Part shown: piece by piece, positions 1,512 to 62,127 of the stretch
Position numbering within the stretch: the stretch's first letter is position 1
Layout of the letters: the number at the start of each line of letters is the position of its first letter
Assembly (NCBI RefSeq): GCF_902502825.2
Contig: NZ_LR723670.1
Location: forward strand, 2,914,001-2,978,000
Origin: Pseudorhizobium flavum
Lineage (GTDB): Bacteria > Pseudomonadota > Alphaproteobacteria > Rhizobiales > Rhizobiaceae
Length of the DNA: 64,000 bases
Direction: 5' to 3'
Notes under the pieces: model-generated
Databases searched by the model: none
What the model was told of the DNA's origin: nothing
Seen by the model: only the letters and a program-made list of their open reading frames with translations
Position numbers and translations under genes: made by a program

Positions 1512-1650
1512 CCGCAAAGCTCCGGCATTCCAACCTCACTACGCAACACTCAAGGGACGGCGGGAGTGACAGTGCCTCAAGGTCGTTGAGGAAGTTTTAA
1601 ACGGAACCTTCAGATGCGAGCTGTCGTTCTCCCTGCAGTTCCGGCCATTA

Positions 1651-16768: not shown

Positions 16769-17767
<999 letters not shown>

Positions 17768-27317: not shown

Positions 27318-28328
27318 ATGTTCACATACACGCTGCGGCGATTGTTGTTTGCGATCCCGACCCTGCTGGTCATCAGCTTTGTCATTTTCGCGCTGCTCGA
27401 CCTTGCACCGAACGACCCTACAGGCGACCTGCCACTCACCATCCCGCCGGAAGTTCGCGAGCAGATCCGCGCCTCGCTCGGCCTCGACCAGCCCTTCCTT
27501 GTTCGCTACCTCCGCTGGCTGCAGCAGTTCTTCATCAACGAACCGCTGAACATCCTGGAAAGCATGACCGGCTGGCAATTCGGCGATGGCGAGCGCATGC
27601 GGGTCCTTTCATGGGCGACGCGAAGCCCGGTCGTCGATCTCATCGTCCAGCGCCTGCCGCAGACGCTGTGGGTGGTCGGCCTCGCCTATCTCTTCGGCAT
27701 ATTGATCGCCATTCCGATCGGCGTGATCTCCGCCTACAAGCAGTATTCCATCTTCGACCAGATCGGCACCTTCGTCTCCATGGTCGGCTATTCCGTGCCG
27801 ACCTTCTTCACCGGCGTCCTGCTGATCGTCATCTTCTCCTCCTACCTGCAGTGGTTTCCCTCCGTCTACGACACCAATCTCCGGGTCACGGACTTCTCGA
27901 GCTTCGTCGCGCAGATGCGGCAGATGGCGCTGCCGGTCGCCGTACTGGCGCTCTACAACGCCTCCCAGATCGCCCGCTTCGTCCGCGCCTCGATGCTGGA
28001 CAACCTGCATCAGGACTACGTGCGAACCGCCCGCGCCAAGGGCGTGAAGGAAAAGGCGGTGCTGCTTGTACACGTGCTCCGCAACAGCCTGATACCCGTA
28101 GTGACGGTCATTGCGCTCGGCGTGCCGACCATCTTCTCCGGCGCCATCATCACCGAACAGATCTTCCGCGTGAACGGCCTCGGCCAGCTGCTGATCATCG
28201 CCATTCAGGGCGCAGACATTCCGCTGGTCCAGACACTGACCTTCATCTTCGCGGTGCTGATCGTCCTCTTCAACCTGATTGCCGATGTACTTTACGGCAT
28301 TCTCGATCCGAGGATCCGGTATGACTGA
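27318..28328 (+). CDS. Peptide ABC transporter permease, DppB type
   Basis: This 336-residue inner-membrane permease starts with MFTYTLRRLLFAIPTLLVISFVIF-like membrane anchor (first segment about residues 8-30) and has five further segments. The coupling loop DYVRTARAKGVKEKAVL is present, as is the C-terminal DPRIRYD typical of the DppB/GsiC group. It has a longer than usual periplasmic loop after the first membrane segment. It overlaps the next permease gene by 8 bases. Confidence 0.92.
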   Translation: MFTYTLRRLLFAIPTLLVISFVIFALLDLAPNDPTGDLPLTIPPEVREQIRASLGLDQPFLVRYLRWLQQFFINEPLNILESMTGWQFGDGERMRVLSWATRSPVVDLIVQRLPQTLWVVGLAYLFGILIAIPIGVISAYKQYSIFDQIGTFVSMVGYSVPTFFTGVLLIVIFSSYLQWFPSVYDTNLRVTDFSSFVAQMRQMALPVAVLALYNASQIARFVRASMLDNLHQDYVRTARAKGVKEKAVLLVHVLRNSLIPVVTVIALGVPTIFSGAIITEQIFRVNGLGQLLIIAIQGADIPLVQTLTFIFAVLIVLFNLIADVLYGILDPRIRYD

Positions 28329-29244
28329 CACGGTACTCCCTGCAGTTCCGGCAAAGGCCGAAAGCCCGGCCCGCTCCGCCGCCCGCGACATATGGAGACA
28401 GTTCCGCGCCCACAGGGGCGGTGTCATCGGCCTTGGCGTCTTCGTCTTCATCGTCCTGGCGGTCTATGTCGGACCCTATATCCACACCGTCGCACCGAAC
28501 GCGATCAACATCCGCGACAAGAACCAGTGGCCCTCTCTGGCGCATCCCTTTGGAACCGACAATCTCGGCAAGGACATGCTGGCACAGGTGCTCGCCGGCG
28601 GGCGCATATCCCTCGCCGTCGGCATCACCGCAATGCTGCTGGCCCTCTTTCTCGGATCGCTGGTCGGCTTGCTCTCCGGCTACTTCCGGCGGCTGGACGG
28701 ACCATTGATGCGGGTGACCGATCTCTTCCTTGCCCTGCCGCTACTGCCACTGCTGCTCGTCATCATCATGCTTTTTCGCGATACGCTGCGGGCCTCGTTC
28801 GGACCGGAGACCGGCATATTCATCCTGATCGTCTTCGTCATCGGCATCACCAGCTGGATGCACACCGCCCGCATCGTCCGCGGCGACGTGCTGGCGGTGA
28901 AGAGCCAGGAATTCGTCACTGCCGCCAAGAGCAGCGGGATGCGCGAACATCGCATCATCCTACGTCACATCCTGCCGAACGTCCTGAGCTCCATCATGGT
29001 CTCTGCCACCCTCGGCATCGCATCGGCGATCATCACCGAATCGGCGCTGAGTTTCCTCGGTCTCGGCTTTCCGTCCGATTTTCCGACCTGGGGGCGGTTG
29101 CTCTATGACGGTGCCAACTTCATGCAGCTCACACCCTCACGCGTACTCTGGCCGGGGCTGGCTATCTCGCTGACGGTCCTGAGCGTCAACTTCATGGGTG
29201 ACGCAATTCGTGACGCGCTTGACCCTCGAACGCTCAAGCGCTGA
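28321..29244 (+). CDS. Peptide ABC transporter permease, DppC type
   Basis: This 307-residue permease has an N-terminal cytoplasmic stretch, a first membrane segment near residue 40, the conserved HPFGTDNLGKDMLAQVL, the coupling loop QEFVTAAKSSGMREHRI and the C-terminal GDAIRDALDPRT of the DppC family. ATG at 28321 is preferred over an in-frame upstream start that lies deeper in dppB. It is the last gene of the plus-strand unit and its ATPase is the fused protein encoded divergently at 22.1-23.9 kb. Confidence 0.92.
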   Translation: MTDTVLPAVPAKAESPARSAARDIWRQFRAHRGGVIGLGVFVFIVLAVYVGPYIHTVAPNAINIRDKNQWPSLAHPFGTDNLGKDMLAQVLAGGRISLAVGITAMLLALFLGSLVGLLSGYFRRLDGPLMRVTDLFLALPLLPLLLVIIMLFRDTLRASFGPETGIFILIVFVIGITSWMHTARIVRGDVLAVKSQEFVTAAKSSGMREHRIILRHILPNVLSSIMVSATLGIASAIITESALSFLGLGFPSDFPTWGRLLYDGANFMQLTPSRVLWPGLAISLTVLSVNFMGDAIRDALDPRTLKR

Positions 29245-29293
29245 CGAGATTCCGGGCCCGCCGAAAAAAAAACGAAAATATCTTCAGACGAGA

Positions 29294-29318
29294 GGAACGT
29301 TCCGGAGAGATGGTCGTT
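29294..29318 (+). promoter_or_regulatory. EcfG-type (general stress sigma factor) promoter of a predicted sRNA
   Basis: GGAAC at 29294-29298, 16 bases, then CGTT at 29315-29318: a perfect match to the alphaproteobacterial EcfG/RpoE2/sigmaT promoter. No protein-coding gene follows on the plus strand; a structured segment begins 6 bases after the -10 element. Confidence 0.75.
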
Positions 29319-29324
29319 ATGTGG

Positions 29325-29433
29325 ATGTCTGGAAGCACCCCCCGTCCCCCGCCCTACAAAGCTTCCAGACATACTCTTCAGTCCCCCTCGAAGAGATGAG
29401 TTGGCTCGGTTCCCCTGGAACCGGGCCAATTCT
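29325..29433 (+). ncRNA. Predicted stress-induced sRNA, GsrN-like
   Basis: The segment after the EcfG-type promoter folds into three hairpins. Hairpin 1 has perfect 12-base arms, ATGTCTGGAAGC at 29325-29336 and GCTTCCAGACAT at 29361-29372, around a 24-base loop that is mostly C. Hairpin 2 has arms CTCTTC (29374-29379) and GAAGAG (29390-29395) with a second C-rich loop. Hairpin 3, at 29398-29432, has a 16-bp stem (including G-T wobbles) with a three-base loop and would serve as the 3' end, though its T-run is poor. Size, the C-rich 5' loop, the stress promoter and the location beside the nepR-ecfG locus all fit GsrN, the sigmaT-dependent sRNA known from Caulobacter. Its 3' side faces the end of the sensor kinase gene. 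The family assignment is inference from structure and context. Confidence 0.65.
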
Positions 29434-29471
29434 GCATCTGGCTCAGGACACCCTCTCCTGTATGAGCGACT

Positions 29472-30497
29472 TCAGCCTTCGTCGGTCACGCCTAGTTCCA
29501 GCGGGAAGGTCAGGTGGTAGGAAATGCGGTCTTTAGCGATGATATATTCGGCCTTCCCGTTGACCGATGCGGGAACCACGCGCTCCAGGACGGTGCTGCC
29601 GAAATGCGCCTTCATGTCCTGCGGGTCATGTTTCTCGTCTGCGGCGAGCGAAAGCGGCTCATTCCAGACCATTTGCACCATGTCATGGCCATCGATGCGC
29701 TTTCGCGTGCAGGACACTTCGATTGGCAGGCTGCTGCGCAACAGCGAGCCGTGGCTGACTGCGTTGACGATCAATTCGTGCAGCGCCAGCCCCAGATGAA
29801 GCGACGCGTTGGGGCTCAGGAGGAGATTGACGCCCCTGACGCTCACCAGATCCCGATTCTCAGGAAGATATTTTTCGGTCTGCTGCTGCACGAGGTCGAA
29901 GAAATACGCCCCGCGCCAACTCGAATCCGTGATCAGGTCCTGTGACTGCGACAGCGAATAGAGCCGTCCGCGGAACTTGTGAAGGAAGAGGTCTAACGAT
30001 CCCGAATAGCGCGCAGTCTGCAGCGCTATGCTCTGGATGATCGCGAGCAGGTTTTTCGACCGGTGGCTCACCTCGCGCAACAGCGCCCGCAGGAGGCGCT
30101 CGCGATGGCGCTCTTCCGAGCGGTCCACTATGGTCGTGACCAGATGAAGCCCGCCATGAGCGAATTCTACGGCCTGGACCCGGAACTCGAAAAATTGCTC
30201 CGCCCCGACCATCACCTCAAGCTGGCCTTTCTGGCCGGCCTCGAGCATTTCCGCCTTCAGCGACGTCAGGCGCGCGGCAACTTCTGCTCCGAAAAGGCTG
30301 TTGTCGGTGGGTGAGGCGAGCGTGCCGCTCTCCCAGCCATCCGGAAGCCATACCTCTGGAAGGTTAGCGACGAGAAGGTAATTGTGGCGAGCATCCTGGA
30401 TGATGACGCTGGCGCCGAGATCGACCAACGCAGGCAGCAGAAACTCTCGCAACTTGTCATCACTCTGACCAGCTCGCTGCCATGTCAGCGGATGCAC
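29472..30497 (-). CDS. Sensor histidine kinase of the general stress locus (HisKA_2/HWE type)
   Basis: This soluble kinase of about 341 residues has a PAS-like N-terminal part (about residues 25-125) and then the phospho-acceptor helix LLREVSHRSKNLLAIIQS with His145. The ATPase part has the N-box HELIVNAVSHG, as in the HWE/HisKA_2 kinases that phosphorylate PhyR. There is no membrane segment. The frame is open up to 30659, but that GTG overlaps the -35 element of an EcfG-type promoter. GTG at 30497 has GAGG ten bases upstream and is taken as the start. It follows phyR on the same strand and is a likely PhyR kinase (PhyK-like) or phosphatase. Confidence 0.85.
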   Translation of the reverse strand: MHPLTWQRAGQSDDKLREFLLPALVDLGASVIIQDARHNYLLVANLPEVWLPDGWESGTLASPTDNSLFGAEVAARLTSLKAEMLEAGQKGQLEVMVGAEQFFEFRVQAVEFAHGGLHLVTTIVDRSEERHRERLLRALLREVSHRSKNLLAIIQSIALQTARYSGSLDLFLHKFRGRLYSLSQSQDLITDSSWRGAYFFDLVQQQTEKYLPENRDLVSVRGVNLLLSPNASLHLGLALHELIVNAVSHGSLLRSSLPIEVSCTRKRIDGHDMVQMVWNEPLSLAADEKHDPQDMKAHFGSTVLERVVPASVNGKAEYIIAKDRISYHLTFPLELGVTDEG

Positions 30498-30630
30498 CAA
30501 TTTCTCACCTCGTCCAACTTGAAGGAAAGAACCGGCAACACCCGCGCACTTTCCCGACCTGCCTTTGTCCTTATAGAGACTGGCAACCGGGGCAACAACC
30601 CGCCAATCTGTCTCCGAGGAGCCAGGGGTG

Positions 30631-30655
30631 AATGGGGAGACGCTCGATGGGTTCC
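30631..30655 (-). promoter_or_regulatory. EcfG-type promoter of the sensor kinase gene
   Basis: On the minus strand GGAAC (30655-30651), 16 bases, then CATT (30634-30631). It has the same form as the nepR-ecfG promoter and equals GGAAC-N18-TT, the RpoE2 pattern described in Sinorhizobium. It gives a leader of about 125 bases before the GTG start. Confidence 0.6.
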
Positions 30656-30701
30656 CCACTCAAATGATTTACGCTCAAAAAATAAAAAGGCTGGAAATCT
30701 G

Positions 30702-30765: not shown

Positions 30766-31560
30766 TCAAGCAGCCGCCTTGACGGTCTCGTTGAAGAACA
30801 GAGCCTGGCTGATCAGCGCCTTTACCATGTCCGGGTTGAAGGGCTTGGTCACCAGGAAGGCGGGCTCCGGACGCTCGCCAGTCAGCAGCCTCTCCGGGAA
30901 AGCGGTGATGAAGATGACCGGCACCGTGGAGGTCTTCAGGATCTCGTTGACCGCGTCGATCCCGGAGCTTCCGTCGGCAAGCTGGATATCGGCCAGCACC
31001 ATCTTCGGTTTCGAGCTCTGGAAGAGGTCGACTGCTTCCTTGTGGGTACGGGCGATACCCGTGACGCGATGGCCGAGTTCCTGGACCATCTGCTCGATGT
31101 CGAGCGCAATAAGCGGCTCGTCCTCGATGATCATGATGTCGGTCGCGACCTGGCGGGAGATCTCTCTCGATGCTTCATCGAGAAGTTCGGTGGCCTTCTG
31201 GACGCTGACATCCAGAACTTCCGCCGTTTCCTCAATTGTGAAGCCTTCTACGGAAACGAGAAGGAAGGCGTGGCGAGCCATCGACGGCAGCGAAGAAAGA
31301 TTCGCAGCCGCACGCTGTTCCCAGGCGAAGGGGGATTCGATGGGCCGGATTTCGATCGATGTGGAACCAAAGATCGCGACAAATAGTTTGTAAAGCGAAA
31401 CACGGTCCTTGGACGTTTCGGGAAAGATCGAGACATCCGCGATCAACGCTTCCAGTACGGCGGCCACATAGGCGTCTCCGGAAGTCTGGGATCCGGTGAC
31501 GGCACGTGCATAACGGCGCAAGTACGGAAGGTGTGACGCAACGCGTGTAGTAAGTGACAT
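30766..31560 (-). CDS. phyR: Anti-anti-sigma response regulator PhyR
   Basis: PhyR frees EcfG by binding the anti-sigma factor NepR when phosphorylated. The 264-residue protein has the expected order: an EcfG-like sigma domain (residues 1 to about 130, with a degenerate sigma-4 helix-turn-helix EGFTIEETAEVLDVSVQKATELL) and then a receiver domain. The receiver has the acidic pair Glu146/Asp147 in MIIEDEP, phospho-acceptor Asp191 in MVLADIQLADG, the threonine in VIFITAFPERL and the lysine in VTKPF. ATG at 31560 is chosen because it begins the family core. It is divergent from nepR-ecfG and has its own EcfG-type promoter. Confidence 0.97.
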   Translation of the reverse strand: MSLTTRVASHLPYLRRYARAVTGSQTSGDAYVAAVLEALIADVSIFPETSKDRVSLYKLFVAIFGSTSIEIRPIESPFAWEQRAAANLSSLPSMARHAFLLVSVEGFTIEETAEVLDVSVQKATELLDEASREISRQVATDIMIIEDEPLIALDIEQMVQELGHRVTGIARTHKEAVDLFQSSKPKMVLADIQLADGSSGIDAVNEILKTSTVPVIFITAFPERLLTGERPEPAFLVTKPFNPDMVKALISQALFFNETVKAAA

Positions 31561-31603
31561 ACAGAATTCTCCCCTGTCGCCCGGCGGGCAATTACGTGGG
31601 AAG

Positions 31604-31628
31604 AACGTGGTGCCGGAAAAAAAGTTCC
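31604..31628 (-). promoter_or_regulatory. EcfG-type promoter of phyR
   Basis: On the minus strand GGAAC (31628-31624), 16 bases, then CGTT (31607-31604): a perfect match. The start codon lies about 44 bases downstream. Confidence 0.85.
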
Positions 31629-31652
31629 GCAAGGGGTGGAACTTTTTTTCCG
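31614..31652. repeat. Inverted repeat joining the phyR and nepR promoters
   Basis: The left arm CGGAAAAAAAGTTCC (31614-31628) and right arm GGAACTTTTTTTCCG (31638-31652) are perfect 15-base mirror copies with a 9-base spacer. Each arm holds the -35 element and T-tract of one of the two divergent EcfG promoters. Confidence 0.9.
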
Positions 31653-31697: not shown

Positions 31698-31907
31698 ATG
31701 AGTGACGACAACAGAAAAAAGCAAGACATGACCCTTTCCCCGCATGACATGAAACCCGGATCGATGCCGCCGAACGCATCGATCTCCCGGAAGCTGCGTG
31801 AGTTCTACGACGCTGTGCAGGAAGAGGGCATTCCTGATAGGTTTCTCGATCTTCTCGAGAAGCTCGAGACTGCTGAGCGCAACGCGCAGTCGGTTAAGGT
31901 GAAATGA
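31698..31907 (+). CDS. nepR: Anti-sigma factor NepR
   Basis: NepR is the small anti-sigma factor that holds EcfG inactive until phosphorylated PhyR binds it. The 69-residue protein has the conserved core in its second half: ISRKLREFYDAVQEEGIPDR followed by FLDLLEKLE. The N-terminal 30 residues are polar and unstructured-looking, as usual. ATG at 31698 is preferred; a GTG directly before it is possible and the ribosome site is weak, which may keep its level in balance with EcfG. It overlaps ecfG by ATGA. Confidence 0.95.
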   Translation: MSDDNRKKQDMTLSPHDMKPGSMPPNASISRKLREFYDAVQEEGIPDRFLDLLEKLETAERNAQSVKVK

Positions 31908-32467
31908 CGATGACCGAGAACGATGATCGCGGATTCAAGCGCGACCTTCTCGCATCCCTGCCGAATCTCCGTGCCTTTGCAGTTTCCCTGACGGGGCGCC
32001 ACGACAAGGCGGACGATCTGGTTCAGGACACGATCATGAAGGCCTGGGCCAACCAGACCAGCTTCACGGCCGGTACGAACATGCGGGCATGGCTCTTCAC
32101 AATTCTCCGAAACGAGTTCTACAGCCAGATGCGCAAGCGCGGTCGCGAGGTTCAGGACACCGACGGGCTGTTCAGCGAACGCTTTTCGGTTCACCCGGAA
32201 CAGTACGGACGGCTGGATCTGCAGGACTTCCGCAAGGCTCTCGATACTCTTCCAGACGACCAGCGCGAGGCAATCATCCTCGTCGGTGCAGCGGGATTTG
32301 CCTACGAAGAAGCGGCAACCATCTGCGGCTGCGCCGTCGGTACCATCAAGAGCCGCGTCAGCCGGGCGCGTACCCGTCTGCAGGAACTGCTAGGCGTTTC
32401 GGGCGAGGGTGACTTCGGCCCTGACGCTGGGCACGCCGCAATCACGGCTCGTGCGTTCGGGAGTTAG
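31904..32467 (+). CDS. ecfG: General stress ECF sigma factor EcfG (RpoE2)
   Basis: This 187-residue ECF sigma factor directs RNA polymerase to stress promoters of the GGAAC type. Region 2 holds DDLVQDTIMKAWANQTSF and the region after it MRAWLFTILRNEFYSQMRKR; region 4 has the helix-turn-helix AGFAYEEAATICGCAVGTIKSR followed by VSRARTRLQELL (quoted in pieces). It is coupled to nepR by a four-base overlap, and a second ATG two codons later is possible. Its stop codon overlaps the stop of the convergent receiver gene by three bases. Confidence 0.97.
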   Translation: MTMTENDDRGFKRDLLASLPNLRAFAVSLTGRHDKADDLVQDTIMKAWANQTSFTAGTNMRAWLFTILRNEFYSQMRKRGREVQDTDGLFSERFSVHPEQYGRLDLQDFRKALDTLPDDQREAIILVGAAGFAYEEAATICGCAVGTIKSRVSRARTRLQELLGVSGEGDFGPDAGHAAITARAFGS

Positions 32468-62102: not shown

Positions 62103-62127
62103 GGAACCACGGCCACCACTTGACGTT
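62103..62127 (+). promoter_or_regulatory. EcfG-type promoter of the hybrid histidine kinase
   Basis: GGAAC at 62103-62107, 16 bases, then CGTT at 62124-62127: a perfect match to the general stress promoter. The kinase start lies 51 bases after the -10 element. Confidence 0.7.

What the first reader, a model, noticed from the sequence alone, without database searches (positions are those of the whole stretch)
29294..29433. Predicted GsrN-like stress sRNA with an EcfG promoter and C-rich loops
Seen: a perfect GGAAC-N16-CGTT promoter faces a segment with no gene. Six bases after the -10 element begin perfect 12-base arms (29325-29336 and 29361-29372) around a 24-base loop dominated by C. A second small hairpin also has a C-rich loop, and a long stem (29398-29432) closes the unit. 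Known: GsrN of Caulobacter is a sigmaT-dependent sRNA that uses a C-rich loop to bind mRNA leaders such as katG. Inference: this is the local counterpart, about 109 bases, next to the nepR-ecfG locus. C-rich loops would pair with G-rich ribosome sites.
Basis: partly seen in the sequence, partly recalled or inferred. Interest (0 to 1): 0.9.

Follow-up and report, generated by a model that had tools for sequence, protein, structure and literature searches.

The report
Stress-induced C-rich small regulatory RNA
This stretch is very probably a real small regulatory RNA switched on by the bacterium's general stress regulator, the local form of a kind already described in related soil bacteria; which messages it controls is still unknown.

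Summary
A perfect EcfG promoter (29294-29318) faces an intergenic unit of three hairpins (29325-29432), two of them with C-rich loops. In 30 of 30 fetched same-genus loci the promoter boxes and C-rich loop cores are kept while the arms covary. Neighbours are the HWE kinase, phyR, nepR and ecfG. In 60 other-genus loci, the slot past the kinase gene holds EcfG-promoted C-loop hairpins far above chance. The kind is in print: ReC64 of Rhizobium etli has this place, an EcfG1-dependent promoter and a mapped start (PMC3892343), and Tien et al. 2018 predicted GsrN homologues in Rhizobiaceae (PMC5869019). So it is a new member of a known kind. The target claims are not supported: katG has no match in 3 of 24 same-genus genomes including the nearest, 20 katG leaders show no consistent pairing, and window start regions pair no better than gene interiors. 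Caveats: no U-run follows the stem here; kinship with Caulobacter GsrN and letter identity with ReC64 were not testable; Rfam CC3664 and ar7 stay below threshold.

The parts
29294..29318 (+). EcfG-type promoter GGAAC-N16-CGTT
   Evidence: both boxes with 16-base spacing in 31 of 31 sequences (window plus 30 loci), spacer bases variable
29325..29372 (+). Hairpin 1: 12-bp arms 29325-29336 / 29361-29372 around a C-rich 24-base loop; predicted start of the RNA at or just before 29325
   Evidence: 6 of 10 consensus pairs with changes on both sides, 100% of cells paired
29337..29360 (+). C-rich loop 1 (ACCCCCCGTCCCCCGCCCTACAAA), proposed mRNA-binding seed
   Evidence: 16 consecutive invariant columns in 31 sequences; core kept in two paralogues with other arms
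29374..29395 (+). Hairpin 2 with loop AGTCCCCCTC, second proposed seed
   Evidence: Stem and the TCCCCCTC of the loop invariant in 31 sequences; supported by conservation and energy, not by covariation
29398..29432 (+). Long 3' stem (16 bp, 3-base loop) at the terminator position; no U-run in this window
   Evidence: 7 of 13 consensus pairs with changes on both sides; a T-run of 4 or more follows in 22 of 31 sequences but not here
29472..30659 (-). HWE histidine kinase (tcrY position), convergent neighbour
   Evidence: PF07536 E 1.9e-21
30766..31632 (-). phyR, response regulator with sigma-like domain (Pfam scan used 30766-31599)
   Evidence: PF22029, PF22233, PF00072
31719..31907 (+). nepR, anti-sigma factor
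   Evidence: PF18557 E 1.1e-15
31904..32467 (+). ecfG, ECF sigma factor, named from domains and locus context
   Evidence: Sigma-70 region 2 and 4 domains

Best explanation
A trans-acting small RNA of about 108 bases transcribed by EcfG RNA polymerase under stress. Two C-rich loops, held open on stable stems, pair with G-rich stretches of several mRNA leaders and change their translation or stability, so that the general stress response gains a post-transcriptional arm. It is the local, sequence-diverged counterpart of R. etli ReC64 and of the Rhizobiaceae RNAs that were predicted as GsrN homologues. Shown here by computation: promoter, structure, covariation, synteny, loop conservation. Inferred: transcription in this strain, any processing or Hfq role, pairing as the mode of action, and any target.
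For: Perfect promoter boxes in 31 of 31 sequences. Covariation: 13 of 29 pairs with changes on both sides, score 0.336 against 0.163 shuffled with 0 of 500 shuffles as high, and structures slid by one to three columns reach at most 0.100. Invariant loop cores on varying arms. A tcrY-like gene beside it in 30 of 30 same-genus loci. In 60 other-genus phyR loci, 12 of 25 EcfG-promoter matches in the slot past tcrY start a C-loop hairpin, against 8 of 329 elsewhere (2 of those 8, L064 and L103, look like the same element beside phyR), Fisher p 7e-11; the criterion was set after I had seen. A covariance model made from the genus alone finds in those 60 loci six hits at E 9e-5 to 0.011 on the expected strand, five past tcrY and one (L070) beside phyR. 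Paralogues in two genomes keep promoter and loop cores but not arms. Measured counterpart: ReC64, downstream of phyR-tcrY, EcfG1-dependent, 5' RACE, Northern, raised under salt.
Against: No expression data for this strain. No U-run after the stem, so the 3' end is uncertain. No target found: complements of loop 1 are fewer than the backwards control in 20 of 20 relatives; no pairing bias at 54 start regions; nepR and phyR leaders of 7 loci like shuffles. I could not compare letters with ReC64. In 38 of 60 other-genus loci no promoter plus C-run was found in the searched stretch. Of the six covariance hits, L070 has no EcfG promoter match in front and L071 only an imperfect one. PMC4167512 predicted SigA- and RpoH-like promoters for ReC64, unlike PMC3892343.
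Confidence: 0.86

Rival explanations
1. A C-rich sRNA that acts mainly by binding a protein or by sponging another RNA, not by pairing with mRNA leaders.
For: Both loop cores are invariant over the genus sample, perhaps more than a changing target set would ask for; no target bias was found.
Against: Caulobacter GsrN acts by loop pairing with katG, shown with swapped mutants (PMC5869019 section 11); Agrobacterium PmaR also uses a C-rich loop for targets (PMC6234868, passages).
Confidence: 0.1
2. Read-through antisense RNA for the kinase gene: because the stem lacks a U-run, RNA runs on into the 3' end of tcrY (-) and regulates it.
For: Convergent arrangement, about 40 bases between the stem and the end of tcrY, no U-run. 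For R. etli ReC64 an additional, larger transcript of unknown origin was seen (PMC2881028, passage).
Against: 22 of 31 sequences have a T-run after the stem; in two genomes the unit lies tandem with tcrY, not convergent; their paralogues lie on other contigs with no tcrY match in the 14-15 kb fetched.
Confidence: 0.06
3. A cis element or short coding gene rather than an sRNA.
For: Mechanical ORFs overlap on both strands.
Against: One-base indels in the loops among homologues and compensatory changes in the arms; the next gene with a Pfam match lies on the other strand.
Confidence: 0.02

Closest known systems
ReC64 of Rhizobium etli (PMC3892343 section 21; PMC2881028 and PMC4167512 passages)
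   Same: Intergenic, downstream of phyR-tcrY, EcfG consensus promoter, small, regarded as trans-encoded
   Different: Reported as 88 bases; letters not compared here. No function of ReC64 in the parts I read
GsrN of Caulobacter crescentus and predicted GsrN homologues of Rhizobiaceae (PMC5869019)
   Same: EcfG/SigT promoter, about 100 bases, 5' part with an exposed C-rich loop, terminal hairpin; homologues typically near phyR-nepR-ecfG
Rfam CC3664 (RF01530)
   Same: Three-hairpin layout, 21.3 bits over the full model
   Different: Gathering score 60; 0 of 40 relatives over the cut-off, and the weak matches listed for same-genus genomes do not lie at this element. Whether CC3664 is GsrN was not established
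Rfam ar7 (RF02342)
   Same: Shares a CCCGUCCCC stretch, 19.5 bits
   Different: Gathering score 60, not reached; no match at E 1 in eight relative loci
PmaR of Agrobacterium (PMC6234868, passages)
   Same: Stem with an accessible C-rich loop used for targets
   Different: Long-stemmed spoon-like structure, reported only from Agrobacterium and Rhizobium sp. IRBG74; its promoter was not examined here

Membership tests
GsrN-like EcfG sRNAs (criteria of PMC5869019 section 14) | Near-consensus EcfG site upstream | tested here: met
   Perfect, 31 of 31 sequences
GsrN-like EcfG sRNAs (criteria of PMC5869019 section 14) | Proximity to the ecfG-phyR locus | tested here: met
   Pfam on neighbours; 30 of 30 loci beside a tcrY-like gene
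GsrN-like EcfG sRNAs (criteria of PMC5869019 section 14) | Evidence of intergenic transcription | not testable with these tools
   No RNA data for this organism; ReC64 was measured in R. etli
[quoted passage not shown]
   Predicted fold, invariance and covariation
Caulobacter GsrN | Sequence homology to GsrN | not tested
   Caulobacter sequence not obtained; PMC5869019 itself had BLASTn hits only in Caulobacteraceae
Caulobacter GsrN | Loop pairs with the katG leader | tested here: inconclusive
   No katG match in 3 of 24 same-genus genomes incl. nearest; 20 leaders without consistent pairing, one strong (G012, about 3.5 sd), three related ones (G002, G003, G015) with a GGGG at -98/-99
Caulobacter GsrN | Processing near base 53, Hfq effect | not testable with these tools
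   Needs RNA experiments
ReC64 | Same place, downstream of phyR-tcrY, with EcfG promoter | tested here: met
ReC64 | Sequence identity | not tested
Rfam CC3664 (RF01530) | Gathering score 60 | tested here: not met
   21.3 bits
Rfam ar7 (RF02342) | Gathering score 60 | tested here: not met
   19.5 bits

The most novel reading that the evidence does not exclude
A Rhizobiaceae lineage has a general-stress sRNA whose function rests on two invariant C-rich seeds and not on katG: the promoter and the loop cores are the parts kept when the gene is duplicated, turned round or its arms drift, so it would control a conserved, katG-independent set of G-rich mRNAs that is still unknown.
Probability: 0.4. 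Interest if true: 0.5.

Novelty: new member of a known kind. Interest (0 to 1): 0.35.

Why it matters
It adds covariation, a count of synteny over 60 genomes of other genera and natural paralogues to the published idea that the general stress response of Rhizobiaceae carries a C-rich sRNA beside its core genes; no Rfam family reaches threshold on it. The predicted ends, invariant loop cores and paralogues make it a good object for testing what such RNAs do where katG is missing.

Tried and rejected
katG as the target: not supported as a general explanation. Pairing with ribosome sites in general: no bias. nepR and phyR leaders: like shuffles. Genome-wide complements of loop 1: no excess. Rfam membership: below threshold; neither CC3664 nor ar7 came up in eight relative loci at E 1. 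CC3664 across the class: 0 of 289 genomes at E 1e-5, so no Caulobacter sequence was obtained. Covariance searches of whole genomes scored at most 15 or 18 first-look candidates per genome, so their counts (7 of 247, 6 of 199) say little; I used a pattern and synteny instead. The loop pattern with one mismatch matched 5 of 247 family genomes, 4 of 4 same-genus ones and 1 of 243 others. A hairpin scan without promoter in the slot gave C-loops in 22 of 47 loci with a placed tcrY against G-loops in 8 of 47, a weaker contrast, and several of the 22 are the 3' stem or chance hairpins.

Made and not used: alignment A2 of eight other-genus units (no model was built) and alignment A3, of whose 36 matches 12 lie on the strand opposite to the element. 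Of 36 same-genus genomes with a BLAST hit, 30 were fetched as loci and aligned; six had no locus. One of 21 same-genus katG matches (G009, partial) was left out. Of 106 other-genus genomes with a PhyR match, 60 were fetched, the better-scoring ones; they stand for 59 genera.

Full report
What is there. Reading 28600-30200 shows GGAAC at 29294-29298, 16 bases, CGTT at 29315-29318, then perfect arms 29325-29336/29361-29372 around a 24-base loop with 15 C, a hairpin 29374-29395 whose loop carries CCCCC, and a 16-bp stem 29398-29432. The predicted fold of 29325-29441 is these three hairpins, -53.1 kcal/mol, z -7.7, 0 of 200 shuffles as good. The promoter pattern is in excess in the window (5 against 1.25). 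Arms of this length are rare by chance: 3 of 20 Markov copies of the window had one such repeat. No sigma-70-like promoter was found in 29200-29520. Neighbours by Pfam: ABC permease of the oligopeptide type (28315-29244, +), HWE kinase (29472-30659, -), PhyR (30766-31599, -), NepR (31719-31907, +), an ECF sigma factor (31904-32467, +).

Conservation. BLASTn found the unit in 36 of 36 same-genus genomes and in 0 of 24 genomes from other families of the order. In the 30 loci fetched plus the window, GGAAC-N16-CGTT is perfect in 31 of 31 while the spacer varies. In the alignment of 31 sequences, 16 consecutive bases of loop 1 (CCCCGTCCCCCGCCCT) and most of hairpin 2 are invariant. On 29 distinct rows, 13 of 29 pairs have changes on both sides (helix 1: 6 of 10; 3' stem: 7 of 13; hairpin 2: none, it never varies), 99.3% of cells are paired, the covariation score is 0.336 against 0.163 in shuffles with 0 of 500 as high, and structures slid by one to three columns reach at most 0.100. 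One of the five measures, the number of further pair types, does not exceed the shuffles (24 against 23.5). Shuffles do not keep relatedness; the slid control does.

Wider synteny. A pattern for loop 1 with up to one mismatch matched 4 of 4 same-genus genomes and 1 of 243 other family genomes. I therefore fetched phyR plus/minus 5 kb from 60 genomes of other genera. PhyR itself was found in 108 of 131 family genomes. In 22 of 60 loci a promoter match (GGAAC, 15-18 bases, CGTT or TGTT, or 16-17 bases and GTT) is followed by a C-run of 4 or more; by position I count 17 past the end of the tcrY-like gene, 2 (L064, L103) beside phyR where no tcrY was placed, and 3 as unrelated; 38 had none. With a fixed hairpin criterion, set after seeing, 12 of 25 promoter matches in the slot pass against 8 of 329 elsewhere, p 7e-11. 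Separately, a covariance model built only from the genus gave, besides the window, 7 hits at E below 0.02 in the 60 loci: six (L063, L067, L068, L070, L071, L073) lie on the expected strand past tcrY, or beside phyR in L070, once loci are oriented; one (L066) is on the other strand. L063, L067 and L068 have a promoter match in front; L071 has an imperfect one and L070 none. L071 and L073 are of one genus. The loop of L071 reads ACACCCCGTCCCCCACTCCCCCAA. Several other genera carry another form, with a small inner hairpin whose loop is CGCCCCCA and a second hairpin with CCCCCTC, which resembles the Rhizobiaceae structure described in the legend of figure 9C of PMC5869019.

Names. A narrow named scan found 13 records with one form of the unit (the window's own form would not match it), among them Neorhizobium vignae, tomejilense, alkalisoli, huautlense and sp. 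SOG26, Rhizobium deserti and populisoli, and Xaviernesmea oryzae. In 12 of 13 the tcrY-like gene and phyR follow; the 13th (L113) is cut off just after the loop. So the window is most likely from a Neorhizobium-like member of the Rhizobiaceae, an inference; its own assembly is not held.

Paralogues and inversion. Two genomes (G013, G033) carry a second copy beside a 315-residue ORF, each with a GGAAC-N16-CGTT promoter, hairpin 2 and the loop-1 core CCCGTCCCCCGCCCTTCA kept (the leading C-run is shorter in G033), arms and 3' stem different. In the same two genomes the locus copy stands tandem with tcrY instead of convergent. This suggests that promoter plus loops are what selection keeps.

What is already known. 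Jans et al. 2013 (PMC3892343, section 21 and passages read): ReC64 of R. etli lies downstream of phyR-tcrY, has an EcfG1 consensus promoter, a 5' RACE start that agrees with it, and loses expression in ecfG1 mutants; length given as 88. Vercruysse et al. 2010 (PMC2881028, passages) saw it on Northern blots, with an additional larger transcript that they could not explain. PMC4167512 (passages) found it raised under salt, and predicted SigA- and RpoH-like promoters for it. Tien et al. 2018 (PMC5869019, sections 7, 9, 11, 14, 17 and passages read) define GsrN of Caulobacter and predict homologues in R. etli, S. meliloti, B. abortus and A. radiobacter, among others. In S. [quoted passage not shown] The searches (listings; some capped) brought up no functional study of a Rhizobiaceae member that I recognised; the library lacks most subscription journals.

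Mechanism. By these parallels the RNA most likely pairs through its C-rich loops with G-rich mRNA leaders under stress. My target tests do not identify any. katG (TIGR00198, E 1e-100) has no match in G001 (nearest), G004 and G022 of 24 same-genus genomes. In 20 katG leaders, pairing with the window's loop 1 lies within about 2.2 standard deviations of shuffles on either side, except G012 at about 3.5 in favour; G002, G003 and G015 share a GGGG at -98/-99. Start regions of 54 mechanically chosen window ORFs do not pair better than gene interiors (p 0.64 and 0.88). nepR and phyR leaders in 7 loci are like shuffles. Complements of part of loop 1 are fewer than the backwards control in 20 of 20 genomes.

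Weak points. No U-run follows the stem in this window or in 8 other sequences, whereas 22 of 31 have one, so termination may be inefficient here. Hairpin 2 has no covariation support. The link with ReC64 rests on place and promoter, not letters.

Noticed in passing
L186:7474 (-) and L187:7337 (+): Second copies of the sRNA in two genomes, each with a GGAAC-N16-CGTT promoter and the same loop cores but other arms and 3' stem, beside a 315-residue ORF.
   Followed up: partly
L188 and L189, about 5000: In the same two genomes the locus copy is tandem with the tcrY-like gene, that is, inverted relative to the window.
   Followed up: partly
window 31614-31652: Palindrome with divergent GGAACTTTTTTT elements between phyR and nepR; the minus-strand one belongs to a perfect GGAAC-N16-CGTT promoter toward phyR (31628-31604).
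   Followed up: no
window 1603-1628, 17524-17547, 62103-62127 (+): Further GGAAC-N15-17-CGTT matches, not examined; about one such match is expected by chance in the window.
   Followed up: no
L071:3471-3577 and L070:4700-4818: Other-genus C-rich units found by the covariance model near the same slot; L071 shares CCCCGTCCCCC in its loop with an imperfect promoter, L070 has no EcfG promoter match in front.
   Followed up: partly
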